A DNA stretch of 29,375 nt from a virus, in IMG/VR virus record IMGVR_UViG_3300017987_000273, positions 1-29,375 of that record. One strand, written 5' to 3'. Below, piece by piece: positions 14,984 through 29,375 of this stretch. Numbering within the stretch: the first letter of the stretch is position 1; each line of letters begins with the position of its first letter. The position numbers were made by a program, and so were the translations under genes. The notes under the pieces are model-generated. The model ran no database searches. It was not told the DNA's origin and saw only the letters and a program-made list of their open reading frames with translations.

Positions 14984-15886
14984 CTAGCTTTCGTTGTCGG
15001 TGACAGCGCCGGTGATGCGGACGAAACGGTTCGCGTCACGGATCGCGAACCCGATCTCGAACTCGACCCGCACCGCGAACATGTTGCGCTGCCACAGGTT
15101 CAGCGGAGTGCCGGCGTCGTTCAGGGTGGCCTGATCCGACACGTCGACCCGCAGACCCTCGACGTAGCCCCAGAAGGCGCTCGACCACTCACCGCCGAAG
15201 CCAATGGTGGCTGCCTCGTCCTCGACCGCGTTGTAAGCATGGGGATGCTTGACAACCTCGCGGCCCAGCACCTCGCGGGACACGCTGCCCTGCGCGGTGA
15301 CGCTGTCGATGAACAGCGGACGCCCCTGGAGATCCTTCGCCCCAAGGGCGGCGATCTCAGCCTGTGCGGTCAGCACCCACTTCTCCACGTCGGAGCCGGG
15401 GACGCCGGTCGCCACGCTCGACAGCGCTGAGACGAAGCCATCGTAGACATCGGTGTTGAGGGAGACGGCGGGAACCGCTGCGAGAGTGTCGAACCCGGTG
15501 CCGGGCGAGGCTTCGAAGCCAAGCGCGGTGCGGTCGAACTTCTTCGCCAGGACGAGCGGCAGACGCTCGACGAGGGCGTTGTACAGGGTGTTGAGATCAC
15601 GCCGGAACTCGTTCGAGAATGGCACGATCACAGCGAGCTTGTACGCCTTCATCGACTTCGTGCCGAATGTCGGTCGGCTCAGCGGCTTCTCAGCCGTTTC
15701 AGCCACCCACTCGGCCTCGGGATCCCCGGTGATGATCGGGATGTCGAGCCCACCGGCCGGAACCTGAATCTTCGGGCACAGGTTCTGCACGATGGATGCG
15801 TGCTGGGTGTTCTTCCAGATCTCCTTCGAGACCTCAGCCGGGAGAAGCACATTGGTGCTTCCCCGGTAAACGTCAACACCAGTCAT
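14984..15886 (-). CDS. Major capsid protein, HK97 fold, 300 aa
   Basis: ATG 15886 has AAAGGA ten bases upstream (15897-15902). The sequence reads as an HK97-type capsid protein: an N-arm (VYRGSTNVLLPAEVSKEIWK), the E-loop/P-domain region with PAGGLDIPIITGDPEAEWVAE and FGTKSMKAYKLAVIVPFSNE, a spine helix with VERLPLVLAKKFDRTALGF, and a late A-domain strand set ending in FEIGFAIRDANRFVRITGA. At 300 residues there is no room for a fused scaffolding delta domain, which fits the separate scaffold gene upstream. It forms the icosahedral head. The 51-base gap before it holds only the ribosome-binding site. Confidence 0.95.
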   Translation of the reverse strand: MTGVDVYRGSTNVLLPAEVSKEIWKNTQHASIVQNLCPKIQVPAGGLDIPIITGDPEAEWVAETAEKPLSRPTFGTKSMKAYKLAVIVPFSNEFRRDLNTLYNALVERLPLVLAKKFDRTALGFEASPGTGFDTLAAVPAVSLNTDVYDGFVSALSSVATGVPGSDVEKWVLTAQAEIAALGAKDLQGRPLFIDSVTAQGSVSREVLGREVVKHPHAYNAVEDEAATIGFGGEWSSAFWGYVEGLRVDVSDQATLNDAGTPLNLWQRNMFAVRVEFEIGFAIRDANRFVRITGAVTDNES

Positions 15887-15937: not shown

Positions 15938-16546
15938 TTACAGCAGTTTTGAGAACAGCGCGCTGAATTCCTCACGCGCCGAAATGCCGTTCTGTCCGCC
16001 ACGTCCCGCGAGGGGATTCGGTGCCGGCCGGCGTGGCTCGCCAACCTGCTGTGAGACATACTGGGCGAGAGCGGTTTTCAGTTCCGCTACCTGCTCAGTG
16101 ATCTCATCCTCGCTGGTTCCCGTAACCAGGCCCATTGCGAATTCGGGGACACCTTCGGATAGCTTGTACCGCAGCAGCTTCGCTTCGGCCTCAGCCTTTG
16201 CGGCTTCGACTTCCTCGATGCGGCGGGCAGCTTCGGCCGACGCCTCGGCCTTGATCTCGTCGGGCGTTTTGTTCTGCTCCTGACGTTGCTGTTCGCGTTC
16301 GTAGGCTGCGCGGAACTTCTCGTAGTCGGCGTCGAATGCCTTCGCCTTCTCAGCGTTGGCCTTCGCCCGGGACTCGTTGGCCCGTGCAGTCTTCTTCCAC
16401 TTGTCGCGCTCAGCGAGCAGATCCTCGTAGGCAGGACTGTCGCCGTTGTCGGCTTGATCCTGGGCCTGCGACTCGACATCGCTGCCGGCGCTGGCGCCGG
16501 GCATGTTCAGCGGCGTCGGGCCGACTGTGGCGTCTTGATCGGACAT
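15938..16546 (-). CDS. Capsid scaffolding protein, 202 aa
   Basis: ATG 16546 is preceded by AGGGAG (16555-16560), eight bases away. The protein has a disordered acidic N-terminus (residues 1-40), then a long charged coiled coil rich in Ala, Glu, Lys and Arg (about 40-135: for example KWKKTARANESRAKANAEKA, RRIEEVEAAKAEAEAKLLRY), and a C-terminal segment with NGISAREEFSALFSKLL that should dock to the capsid subunit. This architecture and the position directly before the major capsid gene are diagnostic for scaffolds of the DUF4355-like type. It would direct procapsid assembly and then leave. Confidence 0.92.
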   Translation of the reverse strand: MSDQDATVGPTPLNMPGASAGSDVESQAQDQADNGDSPAYEDLLAERDKWKKTARANESRAKANAEKAKAFDADYEKFRAAYEREQQRQEQNKTPDEIKAEASAEAARRIEEVEAAKAEAEAKLLRYKLSEGVPEFAMGLVTGTSEDEITEQVAELKTALAQYVSQQVGEPRRPAPNPLAGRGGQNGISAREEFSALFSKLL

Positions 16547-16973: not shown

Positions 16974-17008
16974 CGCATGTAGATGCCTATGGTGCCCAGC
17001 ATGTGGAG

Positions 17009-17027
17009 CGGTCTACAATCGAGGCAT
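17009..17027 (+). promoter_or_regulatory. Second promoter-like element, probably for a leaderless mRNA
   Basis: This 19-base element matches 16659-16677 at 16 of 19 positions (both cggtctaca-tcg). It contains TACAAT at 17013-17018, ending seven bases before the ATG at 17026. A start site at the usual distance would fall on or beside the A of the ATG. The −35 region is weak. The shared sequence could instead be an operator; promoter function is inferred. Confidence 0.55.
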
Positions 17028-17313
17028 GAGCGAAACACAGAGCACCTTCACCCTCGACTTCACTGACAAGACATGGAACGCCGTCAGCTTCGGGAAGCCA
17101 TGGAACGGCTGGGCCACACCCGTGGTCACCCTCGAAACCTTCGAGGACATCGTCGCGTGGGCGGCGGACACCATGACGGTCAACTTCCACACCAATGGCA
17201 CGGCCATGATCGAGGAACCCTTCGGTAAGGAAACGATCTACTTCGAGATCACACCCGACGCCAACGGCAACTACGATCTAAGCCAACTGGGCTGGACATT
17301 CGAGACGGCCTAA
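17026..17313 (+). CDS. Hypothetical small protein of moron-like cassette, 95 aa
   Basis: Start ATG 17026 is chosen because the promoter-like TACAAT lies only seven bases upstream; a longer frame from 16888 would cross the terminator. The protein is acidic and aromatic: MSETQSTFTLDFTDKTWNAV, FGKPWNGWATPVVTLETFED, then DTMTVNFHTNGTAMIEEPFG and a late YDLSQLGWTFETA. The layout is β-rich with one helix (FEDIVAWAADTM). I do not recognise the family. It has no membrane segment, signal peptide or metal motif. It lies between an upstream terminator and a third cassette gene, consistent with an accessory lysogeny-expressed gene, but this is inference. Confidence 0.78.
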   Translation: MSETQSTFTLDFTDKTWNAVSFGKPWNGWATPVVTLETFEDIVAWAADTMTVNFHTNGTAMIEEPFGKETIYFEITPDANGNYDLSQLGWTFETA

Positions 17314-17356
17314 ACCGAACACCAACAGCAACAGCAACCCGAAAGAGAGAAACACA

Positions 17357-17614
17357 ATGAACGTCAACCCGAAGTTCGAAATCGGACAGCTTGTCTACCA
17401 CCTCGGGGAGGGCATCCGCGAGCCGCGCCCCGTCACCGTGGTGGGCCACACCATCGAGGGCCACCCGCTCTACATCGAGGGCCACGCCGCAGTGATGGTC
17501 ACCACCGCAGGCAACCTCGCCGTCCGCGAGGATATCCCGAACCACCCGCTGACCAAGCGCCGCGAACGGATCCTCGCAGACGGTCGCTGGCCCGACGGCG
17601 TCCTCAATAAGTAG
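17357..17614 (+). CDS. Hypothetical small protein of moron-like cassette, 85 aa
   Basis: It follows the previous cassette gene by 43 bases with a purine-rich site (gaaagagaga) before ATG 17357, and no separate promoter, so it is probably co-transcribed. The sequence is MNVNPKFEIGQLVYHLGEGI then PRPVTVVGHTIEGHPLYIEG and a basic end (HPLTKRRERILADGRWPDG). The start (F-x-I-G-Q-L-V-Y) and the repeated short strands suggest a small β-barrel of SH3 or KOW type, which is a guess from pattern. A strong terminator lies immediately downstream at 17633-17660. Function unknown. Confidence 0.75.
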   Translation: MNVNPKFEIGQLVYHLGEGIREPRPVTVVGHTIEGHPLYIEGHAAVMVTTAGNLAVREDIPNHPLTKRRERILADGRWPDGVLNK

Positions 17615-17632
17615 GGCGCAAACCGCCACACA

Positions 17633-17660
17633 GCGCCCCGGCCACCGGCCGGGGCGCTTT
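17633..17660 (+). terminator. Intrinsic terminator closing the cassette
   Basis: A perfect 11-bp stem (gcgccccggcc / ggccggggcgc) with loop acc is followed by TTT on the plus strand. It lies between convergent genes ending at 17614 (+) and 17662 (−). No U-tract follows on the minus strand, so it probably acts mainly on the cassette transcript. Confidence 0.85.
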
Positions 17661-17661
17661 C

Positions 17662-17958
17662 CTATGCGCCCCTACCCTTTCGGCCGTCCACGGGGCGCAC
17701 AGACGGGCGCAGCGCACGTTCCCGCTCAGCCAGCAGCCTCGCCCTCGCATTAGCTCCCGACAACTGGCCCTCAAGGGCATCCCGGGCACGCTGCAACGCC
17801 AGATCACTCGACGGGTCAGCACTCAACACCCACAGCGCCTGCTCGACCTCGTCATCGAACCCGACGCCAGTCGGCGGCGGGCCACCGCGCTGCGCCTCAG
17901 ACAGCGCCACCTCAAACCGGCGGCGCACCTCAGCATCAGTCGGCGGACGCCTAAGCAC
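17662..17958 (-). CDS. Hypothetical helical protein, 98 aa
   Basis: GTG start at 17958 overlaps the stop of the upstream gene by eight bases. The product is mostly helical and highly charged (RPPTDAEVRRRFEVALSEAQ; DDEVEQALWVLSADPSSDLA; RARLLAERERALRPSV) and ends basic. It is the last gene of the run that begins with terminase, converging on the plus-strand cassette. I do not recognise the family. It could be a virion-associated or accessory protein, but nothing in it proves that. Confidence 0.75.
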   Translation of the reverse strand: MLRRPPTDAEVRRRFEVALSEAQRGGPPPTGVGFDDEVEQALWVLSADPSSDLALQRARDALEGQLSGANARARLLAERERALRPSVRPVDGRKGRGA

Positions 17959-18217
17959 TCGACACCTCCACGCCGTAGGCGCGGCGGATCTCGTTCATCA
18001 CCTTGCCCACCCGATCCCCCGGGATCCGCTCCCAGTCGCCGGTCCCCAACACGTCAGCCTGCACAGTGTCAGACCTCTTCCAAGTGTTCGTCACAACCTG
18101 CCACCGCTCAGCCGACGCGGCGTAAAACTCAGCCGTCGAGGCACTCTCGTCCACCCGCACACGCGCCAGCCCGGTGGCCGGACCACCGCAGCCATCACTG
18201 AAATACCGGAACGTCAT
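17951..18217 (-). CDS. Hypothetical protein, 88 aa
   Basis: ATG 18217 is chosen because it follows the preceding stop by seven bases with a GGTGG site. A frame extension upstream (to 18430) reads as shadow of the previous gene. The protein begins MTFRYFSDGCGGPATGLARV, then SASTAEFYAASAERWQVVTN and a C-terminal helix VGKVMNEIRRAYGVEVSS. It appears α/β with no recognised motif. Its stop is overlapped by the next start, so the small genes are translationally linked. Confidence 0.7.
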   Translation of the reverse strand: MTFRYFSDGCGGPATGLARVRVDESASTAEFYAASAERWQVVTNTWKRSDTVQADVLGTGDWERIPGDRVGKVMNEIRRAYGVEVSSA

Positions 18218-18224
18218 ACCACCA

Positions 18225-18464
18225 TCATAGATTATCGTCCGCCACCACGGGAGTGACGCCATCATCGCCGTACTGCCTGAAGTCAGGGTTGCGCTCATAC
18301 CCGCCATCAGCCCACCACCCGACAGTCTCCAACCGGCCGGTGTCATCCCGAAGCACCGTGATACGCCCTGGCCGATCCAGCCGCCGGATCGCGTCGAGGC
18401 TGTCATACACCTCGACCCGCTCGCCGTCATTGAACTCGACGAACACCCGCATCCCGTGAACCAT
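18225..18464 (-). CDS. Hypothetical β-rich protein, 79 aa
   Basis: The chosen ATG at 18464 overlaps the stop of the large MuF gene as TGATG. A start at 18494 is possible but lies inside the MuF gene. The sequence MVHGMRVFVEFNDGERVEVY, then IRRLDRPGRITVLRDD and GWWADGGYERNPDFR, reads as alternating β strands. I do not recognise it. Its coupling to the MuF effector gene makes an immunity or chaperone role conceivable, but the sequence gives no evidence for that. Confidence 0.68.
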   Translation of the reverse strand: MVHGMRVFVEFNDGERVEVYDSLDAIRRLDRPGRITVLRDDTGRLETVGWWADGGYERNPDFRQYGDDGVTPVVADDNL

Positions 18465-21400
18465 CAGAACGAGCTCTGCCTCGACGCGCCCCACGTCCCC
18501 GCCTGAATGTGCTTCGCCAGCAGATCCTCATAGCCGTTAGCCCGGGCCAGTTCCCTCGACGCCGGATCCAGTTCGCGGATAATCGGCAGCGCCCGCCGGG
18601 TAGCCTCAGCGAACTCCTGATAGATCTGGTTCTTCTCATCCTGATTAGCGTTAGGCACACCCTTGGGCATCACGCCGTCGAGGACACGCCGCGCCTCGCC
18701 CAGATCGTTGCGGATCCCCAGCTTGATGCGGGCATCCCAAGTGTCGACCGTGACGGCCCACGCATCCTCTTCATCGAGGACGTTCAGCGCATGGTTGTAG
18801 ATCTTGCCAGCCTCAAGTGCAGCTTGATCTTTCGGCCCGCGCTGCACCATCAGGAACAGTTCCTCTAACTGTTGTCCTGGGGCGCCGGCGTCGGCTCGAG
18901 CGCCTGCCGATACTTCGTCAACGCCAGTTGCGCTTCGGCTTTCAGCGTTTCGCTCGACTTCCCTTCGGTGCCGATTATGAAGATCGGACGCCTTACCGGC
19001 TGGTTCGTAGGTTCCATCAGACAATTCCTCACCAATCGGAACAACATCGAGTGTCTTCAGATCATACACAGCCAACTGGTCGACATCCTGAGCCGCCTTG
19101 ATCGTCGCAGCCGAAGGCTTCCCAACCTTCGACACATCGAGGAACACGTTGTCGCCCTCGACCCACAGACCCAGATGGCACCCGGGCCGGTTCAACTGAT
19201 CCCAGTGCGCGTCGATGAAGTGGTCGACATCCTCAGGCTTGAACACAGCCTTCGGGATCCGCGTCTCAGTGCCCTTCGACGGGGCGAACGCATACCCGTC
19301 GACCGGCGAGCCACCGGCCAGGTCAATCGTGATGCCGCCGTTCGACTTAACAGCCTCATACACCCTCGCCTCGTACCGCTCCCGTAGCCGCGCCATAGAC
19401 TCGTTATGCTTCCGCGCCTCAGGGATCGCACGCGGCTGCACAATCCAACTAGGGTCGATGTCGCCAGTCTGCAACGCGAAGTGCTTCTCCCCGCCCGGGA
19501 ACTCGTCATCCACCCGTCCGGCAATGCCGTGAAACACGCCGTCATCATCGATACCCGGCGTCCACTCCTGCTTCTTCGGCTGCCACTTCGAACGCGGAAC
19601 GTCCACCGCCACAACACCGTTGCCGTAGCCCAGCGCCGCACCGTCGAGCCGGTCAGACAGGAACACGTCGCCCTGCTCCCTCGACAGGAACCGCCGGTCA
19701 ACCCGAATCGAATCGGCCGACTCGAGCGAGGTCCGGTGATACATGCGAACCCTGTTCCGGGCAGGCTGCGGATAGAACAGATCGTCGGCGTCCTTACCGC
19801 GCAGCGCCCACACCGGATCACTCACAACCCACTTGCCATCGTCATCGACAGCGAGCAGACGCTTCACCCGCTCAAGATTGTCGGGGATCACACCATTCAG
19901 GAACGGCCGCGGGCCGAACTCGTCAGTCGGGATATGCTGACCCGGCTTCGGCTTCGGCACAAGCCGCGCAACATCTTTCGGATCCATCGCCAAGACCTGG
20001 CGCACCGCAGCATAATTCACGTCGAAGTCCGTTCGAGGTGACAGCGCAGCGTAGATCGAGGCAGCCCTGCGGATATCCCCCTCATACACGGTGCCCAGCG
20101 AATCCTCAGCGAGGAACCACCGCAACCGCTTGTACCACAGGATCCCCCACTCTTTCTCCTCCGGTGTCAGCCGCTGCCACGCCGCCATATCGTCCGACAC
20201 CACATTGCGGACCATCAGATCGAGGGGAGGATGGATAGCCCCAGCGGGCTTCGCCCCATACGGCAGATGGACCGAACCGTCAGCCTCATGGATGATCGGC
20301 ACAGTCGGCCCACGATGCCGGGTAGTGGTCGCCTTAAACCACACCTCAGTGTCCTTGCCCTTCCGAATCACCGGAGTGCCCTTAGTGATTGGGATCGTGT
20401 CCCACAGCCGCTGCTGCTGCTCCCGAAGTTCCACCTTCCGCGCCTCAGGCGTGCTCGGCAGACGTTCCTCTTCGTACAGCTTGTGGCACACATCCTTCAC
20501 CGACATCGACTTCTCAGTGTGGATCTGTAGCTCGAACTCCAAGCCGTTCAGTTCGAACGTCATGTTCCGGCCGCGATACCCCTCGAACGCGATACCGGCA
20601 GGCTGTTTCTTCGGCACCGCACCCAAGGCGATCAACTGATCACGAATATCGTTGCCAGACTTCCAATATCCCTCGGCCGGCACCACCGCCGTGAAACGAA
20701 CCGTGTCCCGCATCTTGTCGAGGGCCGCTTCAGCGCCGATCCCCTTCTCCACCATCTCGTCCTGCACCTTGCGGTACAGCGACGGCGGATCCTTCAGCCG
20801 ATACTCCAAGCCGTGCGGAGTGGCACCGGCATCAACCATCGTTTGATACACAGTGGCGGAAATACCCGGCTCGACGTTCTCAGCGAGATCCTTATACCGG
20901 CTGTCCACGATGCGGCGAACCTCAGCCCGCTGTTTCGCCGTCAACCTTTTATCGTCGACCTTCGCGTACTGTTCTTCGGTCCACTCGACGTTCTTCAGCG
21001 GCGGCAGACCCTGCTCCTGCCACGTCGAGGTCGACTCGTCAACCTTGAACCTACGCTGCCCACGCGCCCGCACGTCGACAAACTCGACGACGCCTTTATC
21101 GTCCCGCGTGATCACGCCGTCATAGCCGTCGGCCCGCAGCTTCACAGACAGTTCCTGCCCAGTCGCGCCGCCGTACTGCGCCGACAGTTTCTCCTTCCAC
21201 GCCCCACCGTTGTGGTCGACGTACAGCGGCCGATCCAACGTGGCGGTCCCCCGCTCCCACCCCTTCGACGGCAGCGGAGTGTCCACGTCAGCCGGTGACA
21301 TGTAACGCCCCCACGGCTCACTGTCCTGGCCGAACCCGGTCACCCCACGCATCCCCGTGTTGTTACGGAGATAAGGGATCTCAACCCTCGTCGACTGCTC

Positions 21401-23317
21401 GACCGTCGAGGCACCCTTCGTTGCACCCGGCAGCGCCTTCGTCATGTCCGCCGGCCGGGTGCCCGCGCTACGATGCTCCCAATACCGCAGCGCGGCAGGC
21501 GCTTCACCATCCTTCGGCCTGAAGTCAGGCCAGTCGAAGAATTCAGGGCCGCCGTTATTGAGATCCCTGCGCGTGTACGGGCTATCACCCTCGTAGTAGT
21601 CGACCAACACCCGGTGCAACACCTTCGACGATTCGTGCGCGTAGTTGCCGTTGATCTCCACGTCAGCGAAAGCCTCAGCGATAGCCTCACTGCCCTTCAC
21701 CATGGCGCCGCCGCTGCTGCCGTCGAACGAGTAGCCGGACAGGTTATCCCGCTTCCACTCGTCGAACTCGTAGTACTGCTGCGGCGTCCACTGCCCGCCC
21801 TGATCTTTCCACTTCTTCGCACCGACACGCGTTTTCGCATAGTAGTCGGCCAGGGCCTGCTCAACCCGATCCCCCGCATTGTCCGAACCGGCGGGTGTAT
21901 TCAGCTTCACCAGATACCCGGGCGCCGTCGGATCCCCCATCGCTGCGCGGGGATGGTTCGTCAGGCCGTGCCCAAGTTCATGCATCATCACCGCGTAGGA
22001 CGAAGGCTGAGACACCTCACCACTGCCGCCATCGTTTCGGTAGTGGAACCCGCTGTTGACGCTGTCCCTGAAGTCGGTGTCCATCGTCCGGCCCATCCGC
22101 AGCCCGGGGATGTTGTCACTCGCAGCATTGATGTACTTCGAGTTCATGTTGATCTTGCGGGAACCCTCATAGTTCCACAGCCGCCATGTCGCCGCGAACG
22201 TATTGTCATCATCCGAATGGAATGTGACCTGCTGCAACGTGACACCGGGATATCGGTGCTTGAAGTCGTCGACAGCGCGGATCGCCCCACGAACCTGCTC
22301 ATACACACCCGGCGTGAGATCCACCGCCGGCGGCGGGTTGTAGAACAGGGCGTTGGCGTTATTGTTGTGCTTCTTCTGGGTCATGATCACCGTGGTGTCC
22401 GAACCCAGCAGCTTCTGCGCCGCGTCCTCGAGCGCCCCGGGCGTGTCCGCAGCGTCGAGGGCCTCACGCAACTTCACCCGCTCTGGCGTCCAGTCGGCCC
22501 GGTCCCAAGCCGTAGTCATACCAAGCTCTTTCGGGACCGCCGCCTCAATCTCCCGCATCTTCGCCAACAGCGCCTTGAAGTAGGCGTTCTCGTCGGGATC
22601 ATCCTTGAACGCCGACGCCGGCGGCATCTGCTTCCGCGCTTCGATGTAACGCTTGTTGTACATCTCGTAGTACTCAGGCTCAACGAACTTCGTACCCGGG
22701 CGTTCCGGCACAGCATCGCACTTACACCAATCATGCCCAGCCAGAGCAGCTTCGGCGCTGTAATACACCGCGCCACGGGTCGCCAACGTCGCACAGAACA
22801 AGCACGCGTCCGGCTGCGCCACCCGATACAACTTCACACGCGGCTTCCCCCGCTCGTAACCCTCAGCGCGGGCGTTCACGTCGACCGTCTGCCTCGACCC
22901 GTCGAACACAGCCCGGGTAGTCGAACCCGACAGATCACTCAACAGCCGCTGCCGCCGCCCCTCATCAAACACCCCATCCGCGATATTGTTCACAGCCCAC
23001 TCGGCGCTACCGATCAACCGTGCCGCGGGAACCAGATCCCCAGTCGGCGCCGTAGGAACGTAATCCTGATCCGGTGCGAGTTCCCCGTACCACTGCGCCG
23101 TCGACTCAGCCGCAGCATCCACGAACCCGCCCACAATCTTCGGGAACATGTTCACCACCACGGCCTCAACCTCAGCCGGGGACATACCATCCCGAAGATA
23201 GCGCTTAATCATCTGCTCAATCCGGTCGACGGCCTGCTCACTCAACCGGGACAACAACTTACGCAACGAGTTAGCCTCAGCGACAAGGTCGACCTGCCGC
23301 GAAAGAGACGCAGTCAT
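18464..23317 (-). CDS. MuF-type minor capsid protein fused to multiple effector-like domains, 1617 aa
   Basis: ATG 23317 overlaps the portal stop as TGATG. Residues 1-230 match the MuF/SPP1 gp7-like head: N-terminal helices and CLFC (172-175) with HDWCKC (195-200), a likely zinc site. Residues 430-560 contain HELGH (446-450) and a later EAIAEAFAD (544-552), the layout of a zincin metallopeptidase. Residues 650-760 (GYDGVITRDD, then EFVDVRA) resemble an ADP-ribosyltransferase-like fold. Residues 838-975 resemble a RelA/SpoT synthetase (K842..S845..K849, D871xxR874, EFELQIHT, CHKLYEE). Residues 1055-1112 and 1499-1613 look like the two halves of a DUF7178-like domain. Between them lie a second ART-like region at 1188-1295 (MYHRTSLESADSI) and a GYAFAPSKGTE segment. 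MuF proteins enter the capsid, so the extra regions may be injected effectors. MuF is secure; the enzymatic calls are pattern-based. Confidence 0.85.
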   Translation of the reverse strand: MTASLSRQVDLVAEANSLRKLLSRLSEQAVDRIEQMIKRYLRDGMSPAEVEAVVVNMFPKIVGGFVDAAAESTAQWYGELAPDQDYVPTAPTGDLVPAARLIGSAEWAVNNIADGVFDEGRRQRLLSDLSGSTTRAVFDGSRQTVDVNARAEGYERGKPRVKLYRVAQPDACLFCATLATRGAVYYSAEAALAGHDWCKCDAVPERPGTKFVEPEYYEMYNKRYIEARKQMPPASAFKDDPDENAYFKALLAKMREIEAAVPKELGMTTAWDRADWTPERVKLREALDAADTPGALEDAAQKLLGSDTTVIMTQKKHNNNANALFYNPPPAVDLTPGVYEQVRGAIRAVDDFKHRYPGVTLQQVTFHSDDDNTFAATWRLWNYEGSRKINMNSKYINAASDNIPGLRMGRTMDTDFRDSVNSGFHYRNDGGSGEVSQPSSYAVMMHELGHGLTNHPRAAMGDPTAPGYLVKLNTPAGSDNAGDRVEQALADYYAKTRVGAKKWKDQGGQWTPQQYYEFDEWKRDNLSGYSFDGSSGGAMVKGSEAIAEAFADVEINGNYAHESSKVLHRVLVDYYEGDSPYTRRDLNNGGPEFFDWPDFRPKDGEAPAALRYWEHRSAGTRPADMTKALPGATKGASTVEQSTRVEIPYLRNNTGMRGVTGFGQDSEPWGRYMSPADVDTPLPSKGWERGTATLDRPLYVDHNGGAWKEKLSAQYGGATGQELSVKLRADGYDGVITRDDKGVVEFVDVRARGQRRFKVDESTSTWQEQGLPPLKNVEWTEEQYAKVDDKRLTAKQRAEVRRIVDSRYKDLAENVEPGISATVYQTMVDAGATPHGLEYRLKDPPSLYRKVQDEMVEKGIGAEAALDKMRDTVRFTAVVPAEGYWKSGNDIRDQLIALGAVPKKQPAGIAFEGYRGRNMTFELNGLEFELQIHTEKSMSVKDVCHKLYEEERLPSTPEARKVELREQQQRLWDTIPITKGTPVIRKGKDTEVWFKATTTRHRGPTVPIIHEADGSVHLPYGAKPAGAIHPPLDLMVRNVVSDDMAAWQRLTPEEKEWGILWYKRLRWFLAEDSLGTVYEGDIRRAASIYAALSPRTDFDVNYAAVRQVLAMDPKDVARLVPKPKPGQHIPTDEFGPRPFLNGVIPDNLERVKRLLAVDDDGKWVVSDPVWALRGKDADDLFYPQPARNRVRMYHRTSLESADSIRVDRRFLSREQGDVFLSDRLDGAALGYGNGVVAVDVPRSKWQPKKQEWTPGIDDDGVFHGIAGRVDDEFPGGEKHFALQTGDIDPSWIVQPRAIPEARKHNESMARLRERYEARVYEAVKSNGGITIDLAGGSPVDGYAFAPSKGTETRIPKAVFKPEDVDHFIDAHWDQLNRPGCHLGLWVEGDNVFLDVSKVGKPSAATIKAAQDVDQLAVYDLKTLDVVPIGEELSDGTYEPAGKASDLHNRHRREVERNAESRSATGVDEVSAGARADAGAPGQQLEELFLMVQRGPKDQAALEAGKIYNHALNVLDEEDAWAVTVDTWDARIKLGIRNDLGEARRVLDGVMPKGVPNANQDEKNQIYQEFAEATRRALPIIRELDPASRELARANGYEDLLAKHIQAGTWGASRQSSF

Positions 23318-24780
23318 CAGGCGTTAGCGTCCCCCTGGCCGCGCCTAGCAGCCAGCTTCGACGCATTCTCACTCACTGGCGGCGCCGAACCCAGCGACGA
23401 CACAAGCTGCGACACTGTCTGTTTCCGCAGATCCGCCTGCAACTGCTTCTGCTCAACCCGGCTGATATCCAGCCGATCCCACGTCACCGTCGACTCAGCC
23501 GGCAACACCCCAGCCTGAATCAACTTCGTGGTCGCATCTGCTGTCGCCGCCAACGTCGGCGTATGGGCCGGGCGCCACTTCGGGCGCACCAACATAGCCT
23601 CTTTCGGCAGATCCGAACTGCCCTCACGAACCATCGTCGCCAACCTGGCAAGCTGCGTCCAACCGCCACCGAACTGACGCTGCCGACGCTCCGCACGCTT
23701 CACCAACCGGAACTCCATCGCGTTAATCGCCTCAGCAGACGGCGGATTGTCAGTCGCGAAACCAAGATAATTCTGCGGGATCCCAATATGGCCCGACAAC
23801 AGTTGCGCGTACATCTTCATCATCCCGAAGAACGTCTCCAGGCCCTGCCCGCGAAACTCCTTGATATCAGGCAGATCCCCATACTCGTCCCGCTCAAGCG
23901 CCAGCATGCGCCCCATATAAGACTTCCACGCCGGAACCGGATCGCCGTTGCCATCGAGGAAGAAACTCTCCTTCGCGCCAAGAACGAACCGCTGCGGCGC
24001 AGCGTAAAACTCCCGCGCCAGTTCAGCATTCGCCAACGTCCGCAAACCAGACTGGGTCAACCGGCGCACAGTCTCAGTGATCTCAGAATGACCGCGAGGC
24101 CCACTCGACCTCGACTGATTCACAAACGCCGCAACCGCAACCTCGCCCAAACTGTGCCGGTCACGCTGAATCACAGACCAGCCCGACGGGCTACCCGCCG
24201 ACGGTGACTTGTTCTCCAACCAAATCGTCTCATTCGGCAGGAACAGCGCACCATTAACGATGCGATCCTCCACATCGAGGCGCTGCATATACGCCGCCGT
24301 CACCTTACGGGTCCGCGCATCAATCGTCGCCGTCATGTTCAACGGCGACTCCACCGTCACCAGAGGATCCGGCTCGCCCTCGAAACCAGTTGTCACAGCA
24401 GCGAACCCGACACCGTAAATCAATGCGTCGAGGTGGATCTTAATCGACTCCACATCGAGGTCATTCGCCAGGTACAACTCTTCCAGGCCGAAAGGATCAT
24501 CACCCTCGACGCCAGTCGCAGCAGTATTCCAACCCTCGAAATCGAGGCGTTCCTCCACACAGTCCACGGCGGCGGCAGGCCAGCCGACAGCGACAGCCAA
24601 ACCAGCCAACGTCGGCGGCAACGCGATACGCAGATCCTCGAGCCTCGACTTGCCGTCATAATAGTCGGCCTTAATCAGGTTCTCAGGCCGAAACCGCGCC
24701 AACTGCACAGTCAACTCGTCCAAAACCTGATGCTCATCACTGCTCAGGGACAGTGATGGAAGTGCAATGGCGACAGTCAT
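23317..24780 (-). CDS. Portal protein (SPP1 gp6-like), 487 aa
   Basis: ATG 24780 overlaps the terminase stop as ATGA. The N-terminus has short helices with DELTVQLARFRPENLIKADY and YDGKSRLEDLRIALPPTL, the opening typical of actinophage SPP1-like portals (NxxYYxG-like). The middle has WLENKSPSAGSPSGWSVIQR and SEITETVRRLTQSGLRTLAN, followed by the helix region GMMKMYAQLLSGHIGIPQNY and NPPSAEAINAMEFRLVKRAE, which is the crown/tunnel helix pattern. It forms the dodecameric ring through which DNA enters, binding terminase outside and adaptor below. Between terminase and MuF is its usual place. Length is normal for the family. Confidence 0.94.
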   Translation of the reverse strand: MTVAIALPSLSLSSDEHQVLDELTVQLARFRPENLIKADYYDGKSRLEDLRIALPPTLAGLAVAVGWPAAAVDCVEERLDFEGWNTAATGVEGDDPFGLEELYLANDLDVESIKIHLDALIYGVGFAAVTTGFEGEPDPLVTVESPLNMTATIDARTRKVTAAYMQRLDVEDRIVNGALFLPNETIWLENKSPSAGSPSGWSVIQRDRHSLGEVAVAAFVNQSRSSGPRGHSEITETVRRLTQSGLRTLANAELAREFYAAPQRFVLGAKESFFLDGNGDPVPAWKSYMGRMLALERDEYGDLPDIKEFRGQGLETFFGMMKMYAQLLSGHIGIPQNYLGFATDNPPSAEAINAMEFRLVKRAERRQRQFGGGWTQLARLATMVREGSSDLPKEAMLVRPKWRPAHTPTLAATADATTKLIQAGVLPAESTVTWDRLDISRVEQKQLQADLRKQTVSQLVSSLGSAPPVSENASKLAARRGQGDANA

Positions 24781-27700
24781 CCCAGCACCAACATCCTTCC
24801 CTTAGATGACGCATTCACACGCACACCGAAACCGCGTGCAACACAATCCAAACGGGCCTTATAAGCCATGATCGCCGCATACGCCGCGTCAATCTTCTGC
24901 GGCGACTCAGGGTAAGCCTTATAGATCAAATAACCGCGGCTCGCCGGCCGCATACGGGCATTAAGAACATGCCGCGTCAGCGGCAACGAACCATCATGCG
25001 TCACCTCAGGCTTCAACACACCCTCCGGTGTCCGCTGGCCCGACACCACAATCGCGTGCCGCAACCGCTCCACAAACTCAACCACGTTGACGCCCTTACC
25101 CTTCGGCCACGCCATCATAGGATTCGCCACCGAACACTTAACGCGCAACTTGCGGCCATGGTCCTTCTCCCACGCCGCCACATGCTCAACCCAACCAGAC
25201 GGGTCCGCATAAAACGCACCAACCCTGTACCGGCGAAACACATCATCGACAGTCGCGTCGACCTCCGCAACCGGCGGCGTCCACGTCCGGTCCCGCATGT
25301 CACCCTCCCACACGCCCAACGTGAACAGATGCCCATCATAGATCCGGCAGCCGATCAACGCCGTCGCATCAGCCTTGCCCTGGACGCGGCCCATCGAGCC
25401 ATCGAAACCGACAGTGATAGCGTCCCCCGGCGCCAACGGCCGAACCTTCAGCGGCTCAACAGGATTAAACTCCTGGCCCGGCTCAAGATACGTCGCCTTA
25501 ATCCTCGACCACTCGACCTGAGACACCCAACTATCACTGGCATGCGTCAACTGATTCAGGAAATAACGTCGAGCATCCTGCGGATCCGTATCCGCATCCC
25601 AATACTCCGCAATGATCCGGTCCAGGTTGACCCAGCCGCCATTATCGTTCGCGCTGTCACCATAGGACACCCGCAAACCAGCCCGAAGCGAATCCAGTTC
25701 CTGCGGATCAGTTTCCGCCGGCGCCTCGCGGTGATCGTACAGCAGACCACTCGACTTCGACCGGCCCTCACGCTGCGCCTCGAACGCCTTCCAACTAGCC
25801 TCAGCCACAGACTCCTCGCCCGGCAAGAACGCGTTAGGCGTCTCCACGCTGCACCCGTTCACCTTCGCAATGTTGCGGCGGATCGTGCGTGCCAGCTTCC
25901 AGCCGCCGTTCGACTCAGTCCAAGACTCAGTGTTATGTGTCATGTGGCAGCCCACGCCCGCAGCGAACAGGTGATCGTCCGACTCGACCGCGATACAGCG
26001 AACAGGGACGCGAGGCACAAGGGTGATCGACCGAATTGTGATCCATTGCGGCGAGTTACGATGCTGCCGAACACGTTTGACTTTGCGCCGCAGATTGAAC
26101 GGCACTAGCCCGCCGCGTGGCGTGAAGTCAACCCGATACTTACCGCCACCGGTGTAGCGAGCATCAGCCACCCACTTCGGATCTGAGCAGACCTGCCCCA
26201 GCGAACGTAATAGCTCAACCACCGCATAGGCAATACCCTTGTTGGTGTTTACGAATGTGCAAGTGCCGGTAGCTGTTACGCAGCCGTCAGAGTCCATCAG
26301 CCCGCGCAGCAGATCAGTTCGCTGGCGCACTGAACCCAGTAGGTAGTCCGACGGGACGTGCTTATCCTCAAAACAGTCCAGCCCACGAATTGCAACAGCT
26401 TGGGGCGGACGATTCGCCCTCGACGCCGACGAGAAACTCAAGTTACATGCCGGCGAAACACCATCCCTACGGGGATACCAACGCTGATGAGTCGGAATGC
26501 CGCGATCTGCCAGGATCGCCTGCACATCAGGCACATCTGATTCCCCAACCGATAGCTCACACTTCGCCCTAGTGCCATCCCCAAGCCAATACCCCAGCAG
26601 GTACGGGTCAACCGGGAGATCACTTTCAGGCCGCTCGAGCGGCTCACCAACCGGCACCCGGTACGAATAGCCATCCAGCATGCCCTCAGTTGTGCGTACA
26701 CACTCATATTGCTTAGGCCAATTGATACGCTTCGAGTGCCACAAGTGTCCAGCCGACGCGATCACATCAGTGCCATCAGCGAATGCAACACGGTAGCAGT
26801 CATGCTCATTGGAAACAGGTTTCGCCTCACTCACGCGCACCGGCTGCCCACTGCTGCCGTAGACGTAGTCGCCAGTCTCAATCTCCCCCATGGTTGTCCA
26901 ACCGGACGGCGTCGGGATGGGAGTGTCCAGAGCGAGGGCCTGATCCATAGCGGTGAACACCGGCCGGAACCCCTCCCGGGACAGACCAGCCGAAGTAGCC
27001 GCCTCAATCTTCCCCGACGGCACCAAGATCGCTGTCTCCATTGGGGATACGTCATAGTCATCGAGCAGCGCATCACTCGACCGCACCATGTCGAGGCACG
27101 GCTCCCAAGTGTTCGCCGTCTGATCCTCCGACACCGCAACGATCTGAACCTTCGGCTTGATACCCGTTGTCCACCATGGCTTGCCCACCGGCTGACCCTC
27201 AGCGTCCCAGCCGTCCATCACCACCGGGCCTAACGCCTCAACGATGCACAGCGCCGCGACAACGGGACTGTTGTGAGTAACCCACATCGACTCCCCGGTG
27301 AGATACAGGCCGTCCGGCGAGCTCACCGTGATGCAGCGCATAGGCGTAGCCTCGACCGGCTCAATCGACTTAATCACACGCGGCAGCGGTTTACGCTTAC
27401 GCTCAACGAGGCGCTCAGCTTTGCGCGGCAAGCGCACCACCGGCAGATCCGCATACGGCCTGAACTTCAACCGATATCGCGTGCCAACAACCCGCCCATT
27501 CAGCACCGCGTCAGACTCCCGCACAGACACCCGCATGCCCAGCGTGCGAACCAATTCGGCGACACCATCCGCCAGGGCGCGGCGCACCGTGCAAAACTCA
27601 GCGGTGCCGAACTTGTCGATGTGGCCGTCGGTGTCCATCAGACCCTGCAATAGCGCCAGCCTCTGTCCGATAGAGGCGCGGAGATACAGCGCCGGAACAT

Positions 27701-28568
27701 GCTTATCGCCAAGCAGATTCAAGCCCCGCAGAGCCTGCATGGCCCAACCTCGACCGAAGCGGACCCGCCACGCCGTCGAGGTTACTGTCGGCTCGCCATA
27801 CTCAACACCCGCTGCCTCAATCTGCGACAGCATGTGCGGTAGATCCTCTGAGCCACACGTTAACCGTGGGCAGTCGGAGTCACCATCCCCCAGCCATGCG
27901 CCCAACAGATACGGGTCGACCGGCAGATCCGCTTCGGGCAATTGCAGCACCGGCTGCTGCGGCAGAGCAAACCGCGCAACGCCCGGGTTGACGGCCTTAG
28001 TCCTACCCGCCGTCAACGGGCGAGGAAACACCAACCCTTCTTCACGCATCTCAGCGACACTCAGCGTCTTACGGACACGCATCGCCCCACCGACAAACAC
28101 GTCGACATCAAATAGATGCTCACCGTGGAACACGCTCGACGTGCCATCCGACAGGGTCACCCTATAGCCGCGATCCACAATCACCGGCTGCGCCGCAACG
28201 CAACGAATGATCTCCCCGTCAACCCCAAACAGTTCATCACCCGGCCGAATGTCGCCAACCGTTGTCCAGCCCTGCGGGGTTGGAATGCGCGCATCGAGGC
28301 GCTCTGCCTTCCCCCAGCCCTTTGGCCTCGACAGGACAGCACGCCGAATCAGCCTGCCGTTGTTGATTGTTCGCCCCTCGATGGCACGGCCATCGAACCC
28401 GGGATCCACCTCATACAACTTGAGAATGAACCGGATCTGCTCGTCAGTGAACCGCAGCGGCTCACCAACCGCAGGGCCATCGACTACCTGCAAGTAGTAC
28501 TCACACCAGTCGATGACAGCGTTGCCCAGCGTCGGCCGTTCACCGGGAACGGACGGCTTCCAACCCAT
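24777..28568 (-). CDS. terL: Terminase large subunit containing two inteins, 1263 aa
   Basis: ATG 28568 directly follows the small-subunit stop (TAG ATG). Unspliced the product is 1263 residues; removing residues 88-433 and 544-879 leaves 581, normal for a TerL. After splicing, the N-terminal ATPase has Walker A GWGKSP and a Walker B region FTAMDQTESW, then NAFLPGEESVAEASW. The C-terminal nuclease has the RNase H-like acidic residues in FDGS (D1056), FYADPSGW (D1122) and KIDAAYAA (D1227). The protein cuts concatemeric DNA and drives it into the portal. Both inteins sit in the ATPase, between K and S of Walker A and between Q and T after Walker B. Unspliced protein should be inactive. The frame is intact throughout. 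Confidence 0.95.
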   Translation of the reverse strand: MGWKPSVPGERPTLGNAVIDWCEYYLQVVDGPAVGEPLRFTDEQIRFILKLYEVDPGFDGRAIEGRTINNGRLIRRAVLSRPKGWGKAERLDARIPTPQGWTTVGDIRPGDELFGVDGEIIRCVAAQPVIVDRGYRVTLSDGTSSVFHGEHLFDVDVFVGGAMRVRKTLSVAEMREEGLVFPRPLTAGRTKAVNPGVARFALPQQPVLQLPEADLPVDPYLLGAWLGDGDSDCPRLTCGSEDLPHMLSQIEAAGVEYGEPTVTSTAWRVRFGRGWAMQALRGLNLLGDKHVPALYLRASIGQRLALLQGLMDTDGHIDKFGTAEFCTVRRALADGVAELVRTLGMRVSVRESDAVLNGRVVGTRYRLKFRPYADLPVVRLPRKAERLVERKRKPLPRVIKSIEPVEATPMRCITVSSPDGLYLTGESMWVTHNSPVVAALCIVEALGPVVMDGWDAEGQPVGKPWWTTGIKPKVQIVAVSEDQTANTWEPCLDMVRSSDALLDDYDVSPMETAILVPSGKIEAATSAGLSREGFRPVFTAMDQALALDTPIPTPSGWTTMGEIETGDYVYGSSGQPVRVSEAKPVSNEHDCYRVAFADGTDVIASAGHLWHSKRINWPKQYECVRTTEGMLDGYSYRVPVGEPLERPESDLPVDPYLLGYWLGDGTRAKCELSVGESDVPDVQAILADRGIPTHQRWYPRRDGVSPACNLSFSSASRANRPPQAVAIRGLDCFEDKHVPSDYLLGSVRQRTDLLRGLMDSDGCVTATGTCTFVNTNKGIAYAVVELLRSLGQVCSDPKWVADARYTGGGKYRVDFTPRGGLVPFNLRRKVKRVRQHRNSPQWITIRSITLVPRVPVRCIAVESDDHLFAAGVGCHMTHNTESWTESNGGWKLARTIRRNIAKVNGCSVETPNAFLPGEESVAEASWKAFEAQREGRSKSSGLLYDHREAPAETDPQELDSLRAGLRVSYGDSANDNGGWVNLDRIIAEYWDADTDPQDARRYFLNQLTHASDSWVSQVEWSRIKATYLEPGQEFNPVEPLKVRPLAPGDAITVGFDGSMGRVQGKADATALIGCRIYDGHLFTLGVWEGDMRDRTWTPPVAEVDATVDDVFRRYRVGAFYADPSGWVEHVAAWEKDHGRKLRVKCSVANPMMAWPKGKGVNVVEFVERLRHAIVVSGQRTPEGVLKPEVTHDGSLPLTRHVLNARMRPASRGYLIYKAYPESPQKIDAAYAAIMAYKARLDCVARGFGVRVNASSKGRMLVLG
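25932..26939 (-). mobile_element. Intein 2 after Walker B of TerL, class 3, LAGLIDADG type, 336 aa
   Basis: Residues 544-879 start ALALDTPIPTPSGWTTMGEI and end CHMTHN, followed by Thr880. The class 3 set is complete: Ala at position 1, Trp610 after SAGHL in block B, Cys858 in VRCIAV (F:4), and Thr877 in block G. The endonuclease helices are PYLLGYWLGDGT and LLRGLMDSDGCV. DKHVP before the second helix is also present in intein 1, so the two are related. The exteins join as MDQ-TESW. Confidence 0.93.
27270..28307 (-). mobile_element. Intein 1 in Walker A of TerL, LAGLIDADG type, 346 aa
   Basis: Residues 88-433 start AERLDARIPTPQGWTTVGDI and end MWVTHN, followed by Ser434. There is no Cys or Ser at position 1. 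Instead, block F has MRCITV with Cys412 in the F:4 place, and block G has Thr-His-Asn, the hallmarks of class 3 splicing. The block B region is FHGEHLFD, with Phe153 where class 3 inteins have Trp. The endonuclease has PYLLGAWLGDGD and LLQGLMDTDGHI, both LAGLIDADG helices with their acidic ends. The insertion site is the catalytic P-loop, a typical conserved homing target. Confidence 0.9.
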
Positions 28569-29021
28569 CTACTCACCAACGAGACGGCGGCGGTTCGCAT
28601 GCGGCACAGCCGGATTGGCCTGCGGTCCTCGAGCCTCGACATGGTCAGCAGTCGCGAACTGGATCCGCAGCCGCGCCCGATCCTCAGGTGTCGCACCGAA
28701 CTTCGCAACCCGCAACCGGAGCTCGCCGGCGATCTTATGCTCACCGGCCCAGAAACGGGCATGCAGCATCGCCGTATCCCGCAACTCACTCCAATCAGTG
28801 TCAGTGAATTCCCTCGACAGCGGCGACGCGGCCCACATCGCCCACCACTGCCGGGTGATCTCAGGCCACACGAACGGCTGGCCGTCGACCTCGACCTCCG
28901 GTAGCGGCGGCTGCGAAACCGGCTGCACCGGAATGACCCGCAGCACAGCATCTCTCGACTTCGCACCGCCGTGCCCGACGAGTTGGTCTGGATTCTTCGG
29001 CCGTGGCCCGATTCCTGCCAT
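28569..29021 (-). CDS. terS: Terminase small subunit, 150 aa
   Basis: ATG 29021 is preceded by GTGAGG eight bases away; a longer upstream frame is an Arg/Ser-rich shadow. The protein begins MAGIGPRPKNPDQLVGHGGA, the disordered start seen in many actinophage small terminases. It then has QPFVWPEITRQWWAMWAASP, ELRDTAMLHARFWAGEHKIA and RLRVAKFGATPEDRARLRIQ, which match the conserved region of P27-like small terminases. The end is basic (PHANRRRLVGE). It recognises the packaging site and recruits the large subunit encoded immediately downstream. Confidence 0.92.
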   Translation of the reverse strand: MAGIGPRPKNPDQLVGHGGAKSRDAVLRVIPVQPVSQPPLPEVEVDGQPFVWPEITRQWWAMWAASPLSREFTDTDWSELRDTAMLHARFWAGEHKIAGELRLRVAKFGATPEDRARLRIQFATADHVEARGPQANPAVPHANRRRLVGE

Positions 29022-29031
29022 CAGGTGTACC

Positions 29032-29325
29032 TCACTGTACCGGGTCGATCTCGTCGACCGGCTCATCGTCAGCCTCGACCGGCACGCCCTCGACCGCCGG
29101 TTCCGGCACCTCGACGGTATCCTCGACCTCGACCTCGACCTCGACCGGATCCGGCACAATGTCATCGAGTGCCTGCGCCGCCGCGACAAGCGCCGAAAGG
29201 TCAACCTGCCCAGCGGCTCCCGCAGCCTCGATCTGCGCCTCGACATCAGCGATCTTCGACATGATCTCGCCGTGCGCCTTGTTCAGTTGCGCCACAACGG
29301 TATTCACTGCATCTTGAATCGACAC
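29032..29325 (-). CDS. Small acidic coiled-coil protein upstream of terminase, 97 aa
   Basis: A strong AAGGAG at 29334-29339 lies eight bases before GTG 29325, so this start is preferred over the in-frame ATG at 29352, which has no ribosome-binding site. The protein begins MSIQDAVNTVVAQLNKAHGE and continues IMSKIADVEAQIEAAGAAGQ, a coiled coil, followed by an acidic Val/Glu/Pro tail built on a VEVEVEVED repeat. Similar small proteins precede terminase or head-decoration genes in actinophages. The function is unknown; the tail may be disordered. Its stop is 10 bases before the small terminase start. Confidence 0.8.
   Translation of the reverse strand: MSIQDAVNTVVAQLNKAHGEIMSKIADVEAQIEAAGAAGQVDLSALVAAAQALDDIVPDPVEVEVEVEDTVEVPEPAVEGVPVEADDEPVDEIDPVQ
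29122..29145 (-). repeat. Hexanucleotide tandem repeat (four ctcgac units)
   Basis: Four perfect copies of ctcgac encode alternating Val-Glu in the acidic tail of the coiled-coil protein. Such a repeat can expand or contract by slippage without breaking the frame. Confidence 0.85.
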
Positions 29326-29333
29326 TAGGATCA

Positions 29334-29339
29334 CTCCTT
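29334..29339 (-). promoter_or_regulatory. Ribosome-binding site deciding a GTG start
   Basis: AAGGAG on the minus strand, eight bases before GTG 29325. It decides the start of the coiled-coil gene in favour of GTG over the upstream ATG 29352. Confidence 0.8.
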
Positions 29340-29375
29340 GGTTGTTGTACATGCCGTGGTCGATCCACAGCAGGA

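What the first reader, a model, noticed from the sequence alone, without database searches (positions are those of the whole stretch)
18464..23317. A capsid minor protein that seems to carry several effector domains in one chain
A MuF head is normally a few hundred residues. Here it is the first fifth of a 1617-residue chain with a zincin-like site, two ART-like regions, a RelA/SpoT-like region and a split domain. MuF-linked polymorphic toxins are known in temperate phages, but I do not know of one with this set combined. Its place between portal and scaffold puts it inside the capsid, so it could be delivered with the DNA.
Basis: partly seen in the sequence, partly recalled or inferred. Interest (0 to 1): 0.8.

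Follow-up and report, generated by a model that had tools for sequence, protein, structure and literature searches.

The report
Multi-enzyme phage head protein
A phage of actinobacteria carries, next to its DNA-packaging portal, an unusually long head protein that strings several predicted enzymes behind a capsid-binding part; this looks like a new, larger variant of the known class of multi-domain proteins that phages may inject with their DNA, and no activity has been shown.

Summary
The ORF is real: window 18464-23317, MINUS strand, 1617 aa, directly after the portal gene. Its halves (1036-1175, 1499-1614) keep 16 of 22 columns invariant in 13 solo members and model together; the best structural match is 8-oxoguanine DNA glycosylase (Z 8.0, modest for a helical fold). 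The insert holds a second ART-like stretch (unconfirmed) and a small domain found with DUF7178 in other phages. The theme is published: MuF toxins, Apk2, polyvalent proteins. New are this set in one chain, the glycosylase-like domain and the nesting. Of 56 complete genes behind related portals the longest are 1180-1196 aa. Packaging, injection, processing and activity are inferred; no Apk2-type immunity gene was found. Verdict: new variant of a known kind.

The parts
18464..23317 (-). Giant MuF minor capsid protein gene, 1617 aa
22640..23278 (-). MuF-type head domain (VG15), residues 14-226
   Evidence: Pfam VG15 E 5.5e-35; PHROG 1752/193/13257 head proteins
21584..22447 (-). Zincin metallopeptidase, about residues 291-578; HELGH at 446-450 (21968-21982), EAIAEAFADVEI at 544-555 (21653-21688)
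   Evidence: alignments A4, A10; model and VIA Z 9.8 to lethal factor catalytic domain; BFVD matches to phage MuF-like and lethal-factor-like proteins
21053..21379 (-). ART-like domain 1, about residues 647-755; R651, Y672 and E745 invariant in the three-sequence alignment
   Evidence: (50% identity to Skog gene 167), alignment A5, positions; fold not tested
20375..20905 (-). RelA/SpoT-like alarmone synthetase, residues 805-981; D871 and E929 present
   Evidence: 8VX3, E 3e-16; PHROG 7625; phage MuF-type proteins; positions
19793..20212 (-). DUF7178, first half, residues 1036-1175
   Evidence: alignment A9; model pLDDT 62-91 per ten-residue block over 1031-1170
18824..19792 (-). Insert between the DUF7178 halves, residues 1176-1498
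   Evidence: absent from the 13 solo DUF7178 proteins of A9
19433..19756 (-). ART-like stretch 2, residues 1188-1295 (unconfirmed)
   Evidence: PHROG 6170 E 0.0056; model pLDDT about 26-36
19043..19345 (-). Small domain of unknown function ('GGW' domain, name given here), about residues 1325-1425
   Evidence: relatives: Madraxi gene 108, C-terminus of Skog gene 165, a small ORF of an actinobacterial genome
18476..18823 (-). DUF7178, second half, residues 1499-1614 (K1505, VTVD 1522-1525, QAGTW 1605-1609)
   Evidence: alignment A9; model pLDDT 59-93 per block over 1501-1610
18225..18464 (-). 79-aa ORF whose ATG overlaps the giant's stop codon; position of an immunity gene, no recognised family
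17951..18217 (-). 88-aa ORF, no recognised family (PHROG 18406 at E 0.012 only)
17662..17958 (-). 98-aa ORF related to small ORFs just downstream of two other MuF-zincin genes
23317..24780 (-). Portal protein gene
   Evidence: SPP1_portal E 9.4e-20; PHROG 104

Best explanation
It is a head-delivered polyvalent effector. The N-terminal MuF domain docks a few copies near the portal inside the capsid; on infection the chain leaves with the DNA; the zincin cuts it (or a host target) so that separate enzymes are released in the new host: an alarmone synthetase that drains ATP into (p)ppApp and/or (p)ppGpp and stalls growth, one or two possible ADP-ribosyltransferases that change host proteins, and a DNA-glycosylase-like domain that acts on bases of host DNA, nucleotides or nucleic acids of a defence system. 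Shown by computation: the gene, its place, the MuF, zincin, synthetase and DUF7178 domains with key residues. Inferred: packaging, ejection, processing, all activities and the benefit to the phage.
For: Position between portal and small ORFs/scaffold/capsid genes. Domain evidence. Catalytic residues present: zincin HELGH and downstream Glu; synthetase D871, which aligns with an Ala of 8VX3 in the VRYT motif (8VX3 is a D121A mutant: PMC12691689, passage), and E929; DUF7178 K1505 and VTVD. The same domains recur in phage proteins that look virion-borne or late: MuF-like zincin proteins in viral contigs, Skog genes 165-167 behind minor tail genes, E3 gene 205 annotated as structural protein. Precedent in print: polyvalent proteins with proposed zincin processing (PMC5512222, passages) and the delivery hypothesis for MuF toxins (PMC5576092, sections 5 and 13).
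Against: No virion proteomics and no activity data. No relative with the whole architecture was found, so joint function cannot be tested by conservation; only L002 supports continuity, and only to residue 431. ART1 fold untested and ART2 unconfirmed. The DUF7178 halves depart from the family at 6 of 22 invariant columns, among them W1098 to F and F1509 to H, so activity may be altered or lost. The glycosylase match is Z 8.0 at 10% identity and a plain Foldseek search did not list it; the tool warns that helical models can reach such values by chance.
Confidence: 0.55

Rival explanations
1. It is a MuF polymorphic toxin in the strict sense: a weapon of lysogens against non-lysogens, in which the small ORFs just downstream protect the producer, and the extra domains are accessories to the synthetase.
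For: A 79-aa ORF starts inside the giant's stop codon, as a 68-72-aa ORF, taken here as iapK, follows the MuF-synthetase gene in one Mannheimia and two Streptococcus phages; Jamet et al. report a small ORF after 89.4% of MuF toxin genes (PMC5576092, section 5). A 98-aa ORF recurs behind two other MuF-zincin genes.
Against: No Aph1-type hydrolase matches the window (best E 0.07, inside the giant itself) and the 79-aa ORF has no IapK match (E 2.5), though IapK proteins diverge fast (control: the three IapK proteins find each other at E about 1e-4 or better). The synthetase is not at the C-terminus. No integrase was seen in the ORFs scanned, but the record is a 29-kb fragment.
Confidence: 0.22
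2. The long C-terminal part is used during head assembly in the producing cell (zincin as maturation protease, other parts as ballast or remnants) and is cut off before packaging.
For: Relatives of the head domain are filed as head maturation proteases in PHROGs; phage P1 DdrB is cleaved before encapsidation (PMC5512222, passage). The DUF7178 halves lack 6 of 22 family-invariant residues.
Against: Most relatives downstream of related portals are short (52 of 56 complete genes are 187-560 aa; many of these contigs are near copies of each other), so a long extension is not needed for heads; the synthetase and zincin keep their key residues, unlike remnants.
Confidence: 0.13
3. The chain is partly an assembly chimera, or a recent fusion of unrelated genes without common function.
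For: No second copy of the whole architecture: at most 16% of the chain covered in the 60 phage rows listed of 629, at most 13% in the 12 plasmid rows listed of 38.
Against: One open frame with even codon composition; an independent contig carries MuF and the start of the zincin in frame (99 of 200 residues identical over 231-431); MuF-like zincin fusions exist elsewhere.
Confidence: 0.06

Closest known systems
Polyvalent proteins (Iyer et al. 2017, PMC5512222; passages read)
   Same: Several unrelated enzymatic domains in one phage polypeptide; zincin-like peptidase, ART and RelA/SpoT domains all listed there; MuF as a virion domain; delivery with DNA proposed.
   Different: No word beginning with 'glycosylase' occurs in its main text; no MuF + zincin + ART-like + synthetase + DUF7178 chain appeared in the passages I read (figures not held).
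MuF polymorphic toxins (Jamet et al. 2017, PMC5576092; abstract, sections 5 and 13 read)
   Same: MuF head domain after the portal; metallopeptidase, ART and RelA-like toxin domains; small ORF downstream.
   Different: Described there as a head plus a C-terminal extension with a toxin domain; here several domains, with the synthetase in the middle.
Apk2, MuF-(p)ppApp synthetases (PMC12226406; abstract and sections 3, 12, 18 read)
   Same: MuF plus alarmone synthetase; 26-34% identity to the synthetase part of head proteins of Streptococcus, Mannheimia, Pasteurella and Haemophilus-group phages.
   Different: Apk2 ends with the synthetase and, in S. pneumoniae, is followed by iapK and aph1; neither gene is recognisable here. 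[quoted passage not shown]
MuF-ART fusion proteins of M. abscessus-group prophages (prophiFSAT01-1 gene 53 and kin)
   Same: Closest long MuF relatives; portal 55-58% identical, head domain 37-39%.
   Different: 1180-1196 aa; the C-terminus is an ADPrib_exo_Tox ART; BLAST aligns only residues 10-269 with the window chain.
DUF7178 phage family (Madraxi gene 106, Skog gene 165, S-CRES3 gp63)
   Same: 16 of 22 family-invariant columns kept; DUF7178 and the GGW domain also share a protein in Skog.
   Different: 54 of 55 viral-contig members measured are no longer than 300 aa; not joined to a MuF head in the loci I opened.

Membership tests
MuF polymorphic toxins | N-terminal MuF-superfamily head domain, gene next to the portal | tested here: met
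   VG15 E 5.5e-35, head PHROGs, portal directly upstream; that VG15 belongs to the MuF superfamily is from recall and from the MuF-like labels of matching phage genes
MuF polymorphic toxins | Toxin-type domain in the C-terminal extension | tested here: met
   Synthetase and zincin; toxicity itself not tested
MuF polymorphic toxins | Small ORF (under 150 aa) downstream | tested here: met
   79-aa ORF overlapping the stop codon
MuF polymorphic toxins | Temperate phage | tested here: inconclusive
   Window is a 29,375-base virus record; ten further ORFs scanned, none an integrase
Apk2 (MuF-(p)ppApp synthetase) | MuF and alarmone synthetase in one chain | tested here: met
Apk2 (MuF-(p)ppApp synthetase) | Synthetase is the C-terminal domain | tested here: not met
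   805-981 of 1617
Apk2 (MuF-(p)ppApp synthetase) | aph1 hydrolase gene downstream | tested here: not met
   No match of four Aph1-type proteins in the window (best E 0.07); a gene beyond this fragment is not excluded
Apk2 (MuF-(p)ppApp synthetase) | iapK gene downstream | tested here: inconclusive
   79-aa ORF in the right place without sequence match (E 2.5); IapK proteins are divergent
Apk2 (MuF-(p)ppApp synthetase) | Makes only (p)ppApp | not testable with these tools
   needs an enzyme assay
Polyvalent proteins | Several domains of unrelated biochemistry in one polypeptide of a phage | tested here: met
Polyvalent proteins | Carried in the virion and transferred to the host | not testable with these tools
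   needs virion proteomics and a transfer assay
Zincin metallopeptidases (lethal-factor-like) | HExxH and a downstream Glu | tested here: met
   HELGH 446-450 and EAIAEAF 544-550; HExxH and EA[IM]AEAF in all six zincin relatives of A10
Zincin metallopeptidases (lethal-factor-like) | Zincin fold | tested here: met
   VIA Z 9.8, rmsd 3.8, 180 aligned to 4WF6; rows 1-11 of the 50 listed are lethal factor (Z 9.8 to 7.8), row 12 an aminopeptidase at Z 6.5. Against: plain PDB Foldseek E 0.82 or worse with other proteins on top. BFVD E 1.1e-7 to a phage MuF-like protein
RelA/SpoT-type alarmone synthetases | Synthetase sequence with catalytic Asp and Glu | tested here: met
   E 3e-16 to 8VX3; D871, E929, R840/K842
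DUF7178 | Family profile and invariant residues | tested here: met
   35.9 bits against cut-off 27; 16 of 22 columns invariant in 13 members kept, against a mean of 1.3 and a maximum of 7 with random window residues (the alignment itself leans towards matches)
HhH-GPD DNA glycosylases | HhH-GPD fold | tested here: inconclusive
   8-oxoguanine glycosylase 3I0W Z 8.0, rmsd 4.7, 168 aligned, across both halves; three entries of this enzyme lead, next row Z 3.6; no sequence match in PDB; not among the plain Foldseek rows
HhH-GPD DNA glycosylases | Catalytic Asp after the HhH motif | tested here: inconclusive
   Invariant D1525 in VTVD lies where recalled glycosylase motifs have it; not checked on coordinates
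ADP-ribosyltransferases (ART1) | ART fold and catalytic triad | tested here: inconclusive
   R651, Y672, E745 invariant in a three-sequence alignment; fold lists were filled by the zincin; no Pfam, PHROG or PDB family match to its relatives

The most novel reading that the evidence does not exclude
One virion protein that delivers at least three different attacks at once: a peptidase, an alarmone synthetase and a DNA-base-excising enzyme, the last being a glycosylase split by a 320-residue insert that itself holds further effector domains. The nesting could keep the glycosylase inactive until the zincin or another protease removes or opens the insert after injection. A head-borne, injected DNA glycosylase of this kind was not found in print (searches; listings only, plus the passages read).
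Probability: 0.25. Interest if true: 0.78.

Novelty: new variant of a known kind. Interest (0 to 1): 0.52.

Why it matters
Multi-enzyme head proteins are predicted widely but little tested. This chain offers separable domains, two of them with intact catalytic residues, and a clear parts list, so packaging, zincin processing and multi-target action of an injected protein could be tested directly. It also gives DUF7178, of which one member found 118 phage records, a probable fold and a place in a head protein.

Tried and rejected
Full-length relatives: none. P0001 in viral contigs gave only L002; residues 983-1617 gave none (3 stretches matched, none confirmed); genome contigs with a MuF alignment confirmed none of 44 stretches, with a portal alignment 1 of 267. 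'Two ARTs' was not accepted: ART2 has only E 0.0056 and a low-confidence model; ART1 was not isolated by any fold search. Profiles of DUF7178, ART1 and the GGW domain found no PDB sequence match better than E 0.22. Plain Foldseek of both models against PDB gave nothing below E 0.8. The last viral scan, for the GGW domain, confirmed none of 69 stretches. PF23802 was absent from 296 bacterial genomes, but its control also rang nowhere, so this shows no absence. An E3 virion-proteomics paper was looked for; none was recognised among the 6 titles listed of 16, so 'structural protein' for E3 gene 205 is the record's label only. My own errors: and one row used an out-of-frame stretch (18227-18463) for the 79-aa ORF; redone in frame. 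Before the count five loci were dropped (L089, L096, L101, L106, L107: little or nothing left after the portal match); of the 62 examined, six next-gene frames run off the contig. For the DUF7178 length count 55 of the 80 loci were measured, and 13 went into A9.
Full report
What is there. The ORF lies at 18464-23317 on the minus strand and encodes 1617 aa. The order on that strand is terminase small subunit (28569-29246, Pfam Terminase_7), terminase large subunit with two intein-like inserts (24777-28568), portal (23317-24780), the giant, three small ORFs (79, 88, 98 aa), then scaffold-like (15938-16546) and major capsid (14984-15886) genes. Third-position GC is high in every block of the frame. 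The window is a 29,375-base virus record; a megablast of 17000-29375 against phage records found no match (records very near the window may be left out there). The portal is closest to M. abscessus-group prophages (55-58% identity).

Head domain. Residues 14-226 match VG15 (E 5.5e-35) and three PHROGs named head maturation protease. 629 phage records match the chain; in the 60 listed no match covers more than 16%, and none of the 629 covers 80%. In 62 contigs with a related portal I read the next gene: 56 are complete, 52 of them 187-560 aa and four 1180-1196 aa; six run off the contig, the longest open frame being 955 aa (L049), so L049 may be longer still (five loci dropped beforehand; many contigs are near copies). 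The window gene is the longest seen. The four long ones are 68-87% identical over their length to prophiFSAT01-1 gene 53, which ends in an ADPrib_exo_Tox ART.

Zincin. HELGH at 446-450 and a conserved EAIAEAFADVEI helix at 544-555 are shared with solo proteins near the left end of Mycobacterium phage genomes (Fayely gene 2 and kin) and with MuF-like proteins of 516, 716 and 578 aa in viral contigs (L152, L153/L154, L155; that these are MuF heads I judge from recalled cysteine motifs). The model (525 residues, 9 sequences, mean pLDDT 59; over the zincin the ten-residue means run from 33 to 86, 17 of 29 at 70 or more) aligns best with the catalytic domain of anthrax lethal factor (Z 9.8, rmsd 3.8, 180 residues, 14% identity) and then with other metallopeptidases. 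Iyer et al. placed the polyvalent peptidase with the same enzyme (PMC5512222, passage). BFVD gives phage proteins labelled MuF-like minor capsid protein (E 1.1e-7), lethal factor and metalloprotease.

ART-like 1. About 641-776 is 50% identical over 136 residues to gene 167 of Gordonia phage Skog (202 aa) and 39% identical over 122 residues to the C-terminus of a 960-aa phage protein. R651, Y672 and E745 are invariant in the three-way alignment and the model shows strands and helices in a plausible order (ten-residue means 41-71). No profile library names its relatives. It is a real domain; ART is a reading, not a result.

Alarmone synthetase. 805-981 matches SaEAS (8VX3) at E 3e-16. Of 45 phage records that match, 42 are phages of Streptococcus, Pasteurella, Mannheimia and the Haemophilus/Aggregatibacter group, at 26-34% identity, mostly labelled head proteins or hypothetical, and three are Helicobacter phage records. 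D871 aligns with an Ala of 8VX3 at the VRYT motif, and 8VX3 is a D121A mutant; E929 aligns with its Glu. In 249 genomes of the order of Mycobacteroides sp. LB1, 22 had a match to any part of the chain; 13 of the 24 match rows are synthetase, 8 MuF, 2 zincin, 1 GGW (two candidates per genome at most were scored). Seven synthetase rows that I opened lie in ORFs of about 1,350 to over 6,600 aa, several of which by eye resemble type VII-exported proteins; such exported synthetases are described in PMC12691689 (abstract and passages).

Split domain. Pfam DUF7178 matches 1036-1159 (E 9.4e-9). Searching its profile in 46 records behind my loci gave 5 matches: Madraxi gene 106 (annotated glycosyltransferase, E 2e-58), Skog gene 165 (glycosylase) and its viral-contig copy, a Skog-like contig, and the contig that holds another ART1 relative. 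Madraxi gene 106 finds 118 phage records; of the 30 rows listed five are named glycosylase, one N-glycosylase/DNA lyase, one glycosyltransferase, most of the rest hypothetical. In an alignment with 13 such proteins, 22 columns are invariant in the 13; the window chain keeps 16: G1058, W1061, Y1062, S1093, P1094, N1101 before, and K1505, V1522, D1525, Y1566, A1576, A1591, Q1605, A1606, T1608, W1609 after, an insert that none of the 13 has. It departs from the family at six: 1065, 1098, 1509, 1513, 1528 and 1573. In the model (617 residues, 14 sequences, mean pLDDT 56.6) both halves are fairly confident (means 62-91 and 59-93) and the insert is not. Structural realignment gives 8-oxoguanine DNA glycosylase 3I0W at Z 8.0, 168 residues, rmsd 4.7, across both halves; three entries of this enzyme lead, the next row is at 3.6. 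Against this: identity is 10%, plain Foldseek did not list it, and Z 8 can be reached by unrelated helical models.

The insert. About 1325-1425 is related to Madraxi gene 108, two genes from its DUF7178 gene, to the C-terminus of the DUF7178 protein of Skog, and to a small genomic ORF. DUF7178 with GGW, and ART1 two genes on, thus recur together in Skog. 1188-1295 has only PHROG 6170 at E 0.0056.

Downstream genes. The 79-aa ORF starts inside the stop codon of the giant, much as a 68-72-aa ORF follows the synthetase-bearing head gene in three phages, but has no Pfam family, only PHROG 3174 at E 0.07, and no IapK match. No Aph1-like hydrolase is in the window. The 98-aa ORF has relatives just behind the MuF-zincin genes of L152 (E 1e-6) and L155 (E 0.004), and none at E 0.01 or better in the other 254 loci held apart from the window's own copy, L153/L154 included.

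Support from an independent contig. L002 (4,084 bases) has portal 431/487, terminase 378/424, MuF 1-230 154/223 and 231-431 99/200 identical residues. So MuF and the start of the zincin are joined elsewhere too, and the part behind the head changes faster. Beyond 431 I found no independent support.

Mechanism. I favour injection with the DNA and action early in infection over a lysogen's weapon, because several different activities and no recognisable immunity pair fit host take-over or counter-defence better. This is inference; PMC5576092 offers both readings (section 13).

Novelty. The parts and the idea are published. The set, the glycosylase-like domain in a MuF protein and the nesting were not met in the passages and sections I read or in the listings of searches (supplements and figures not readable here). 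Hence: new variant of a known kind.

Noticed in passing
window 24777-28568 (-): The terminase large subunit carries two intein-like inserts with LAGLIDADG signatures; the second, after FTAMDQ and before TESW, is absent from the close relative L002.
   Followed up: partly
window 17662-17958 (-); L152 3602-3790; L155 3630-3836: A small gene family found behind three MuF-zincin genes; could be an immunity, chaperone or head gene.
   Followed up: partly
L004 2686-6423 (Skog genes 165-167); L173 2852-5428 (E3 gene 205): DUF7178, the GGW domain, ART1 and another conserved part with an HD[FA]FGHA motif form a recurring set; in E3 the FGHA part and DUF7178 are fused in a protein annotated as structural (E3 read by eye and by tblastn).
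   Followed up: partly
L257 4472-5696 (Rhodococcus aetherivorans plasmid pRaL13d): An HD-domain gene related to phage Aph1 proteins and an alarmone synthetase gene overlap as a likely toxin-antitoxin pair near type I restriction genes.
   Followed up: no
window 6675-11744 (-): The tape-measure protein has a weak NlpC/P60-like stretch (E 0.085) with an FDCSGY motif, possibly a wall-cutting domain.
   Followed up: no
L137-L141, L147-L148: Very long actinobacterial ORFs (up to over 7,300 aa) hold the same zincin (twice in G501) or synthetase.
   Followed up: partly
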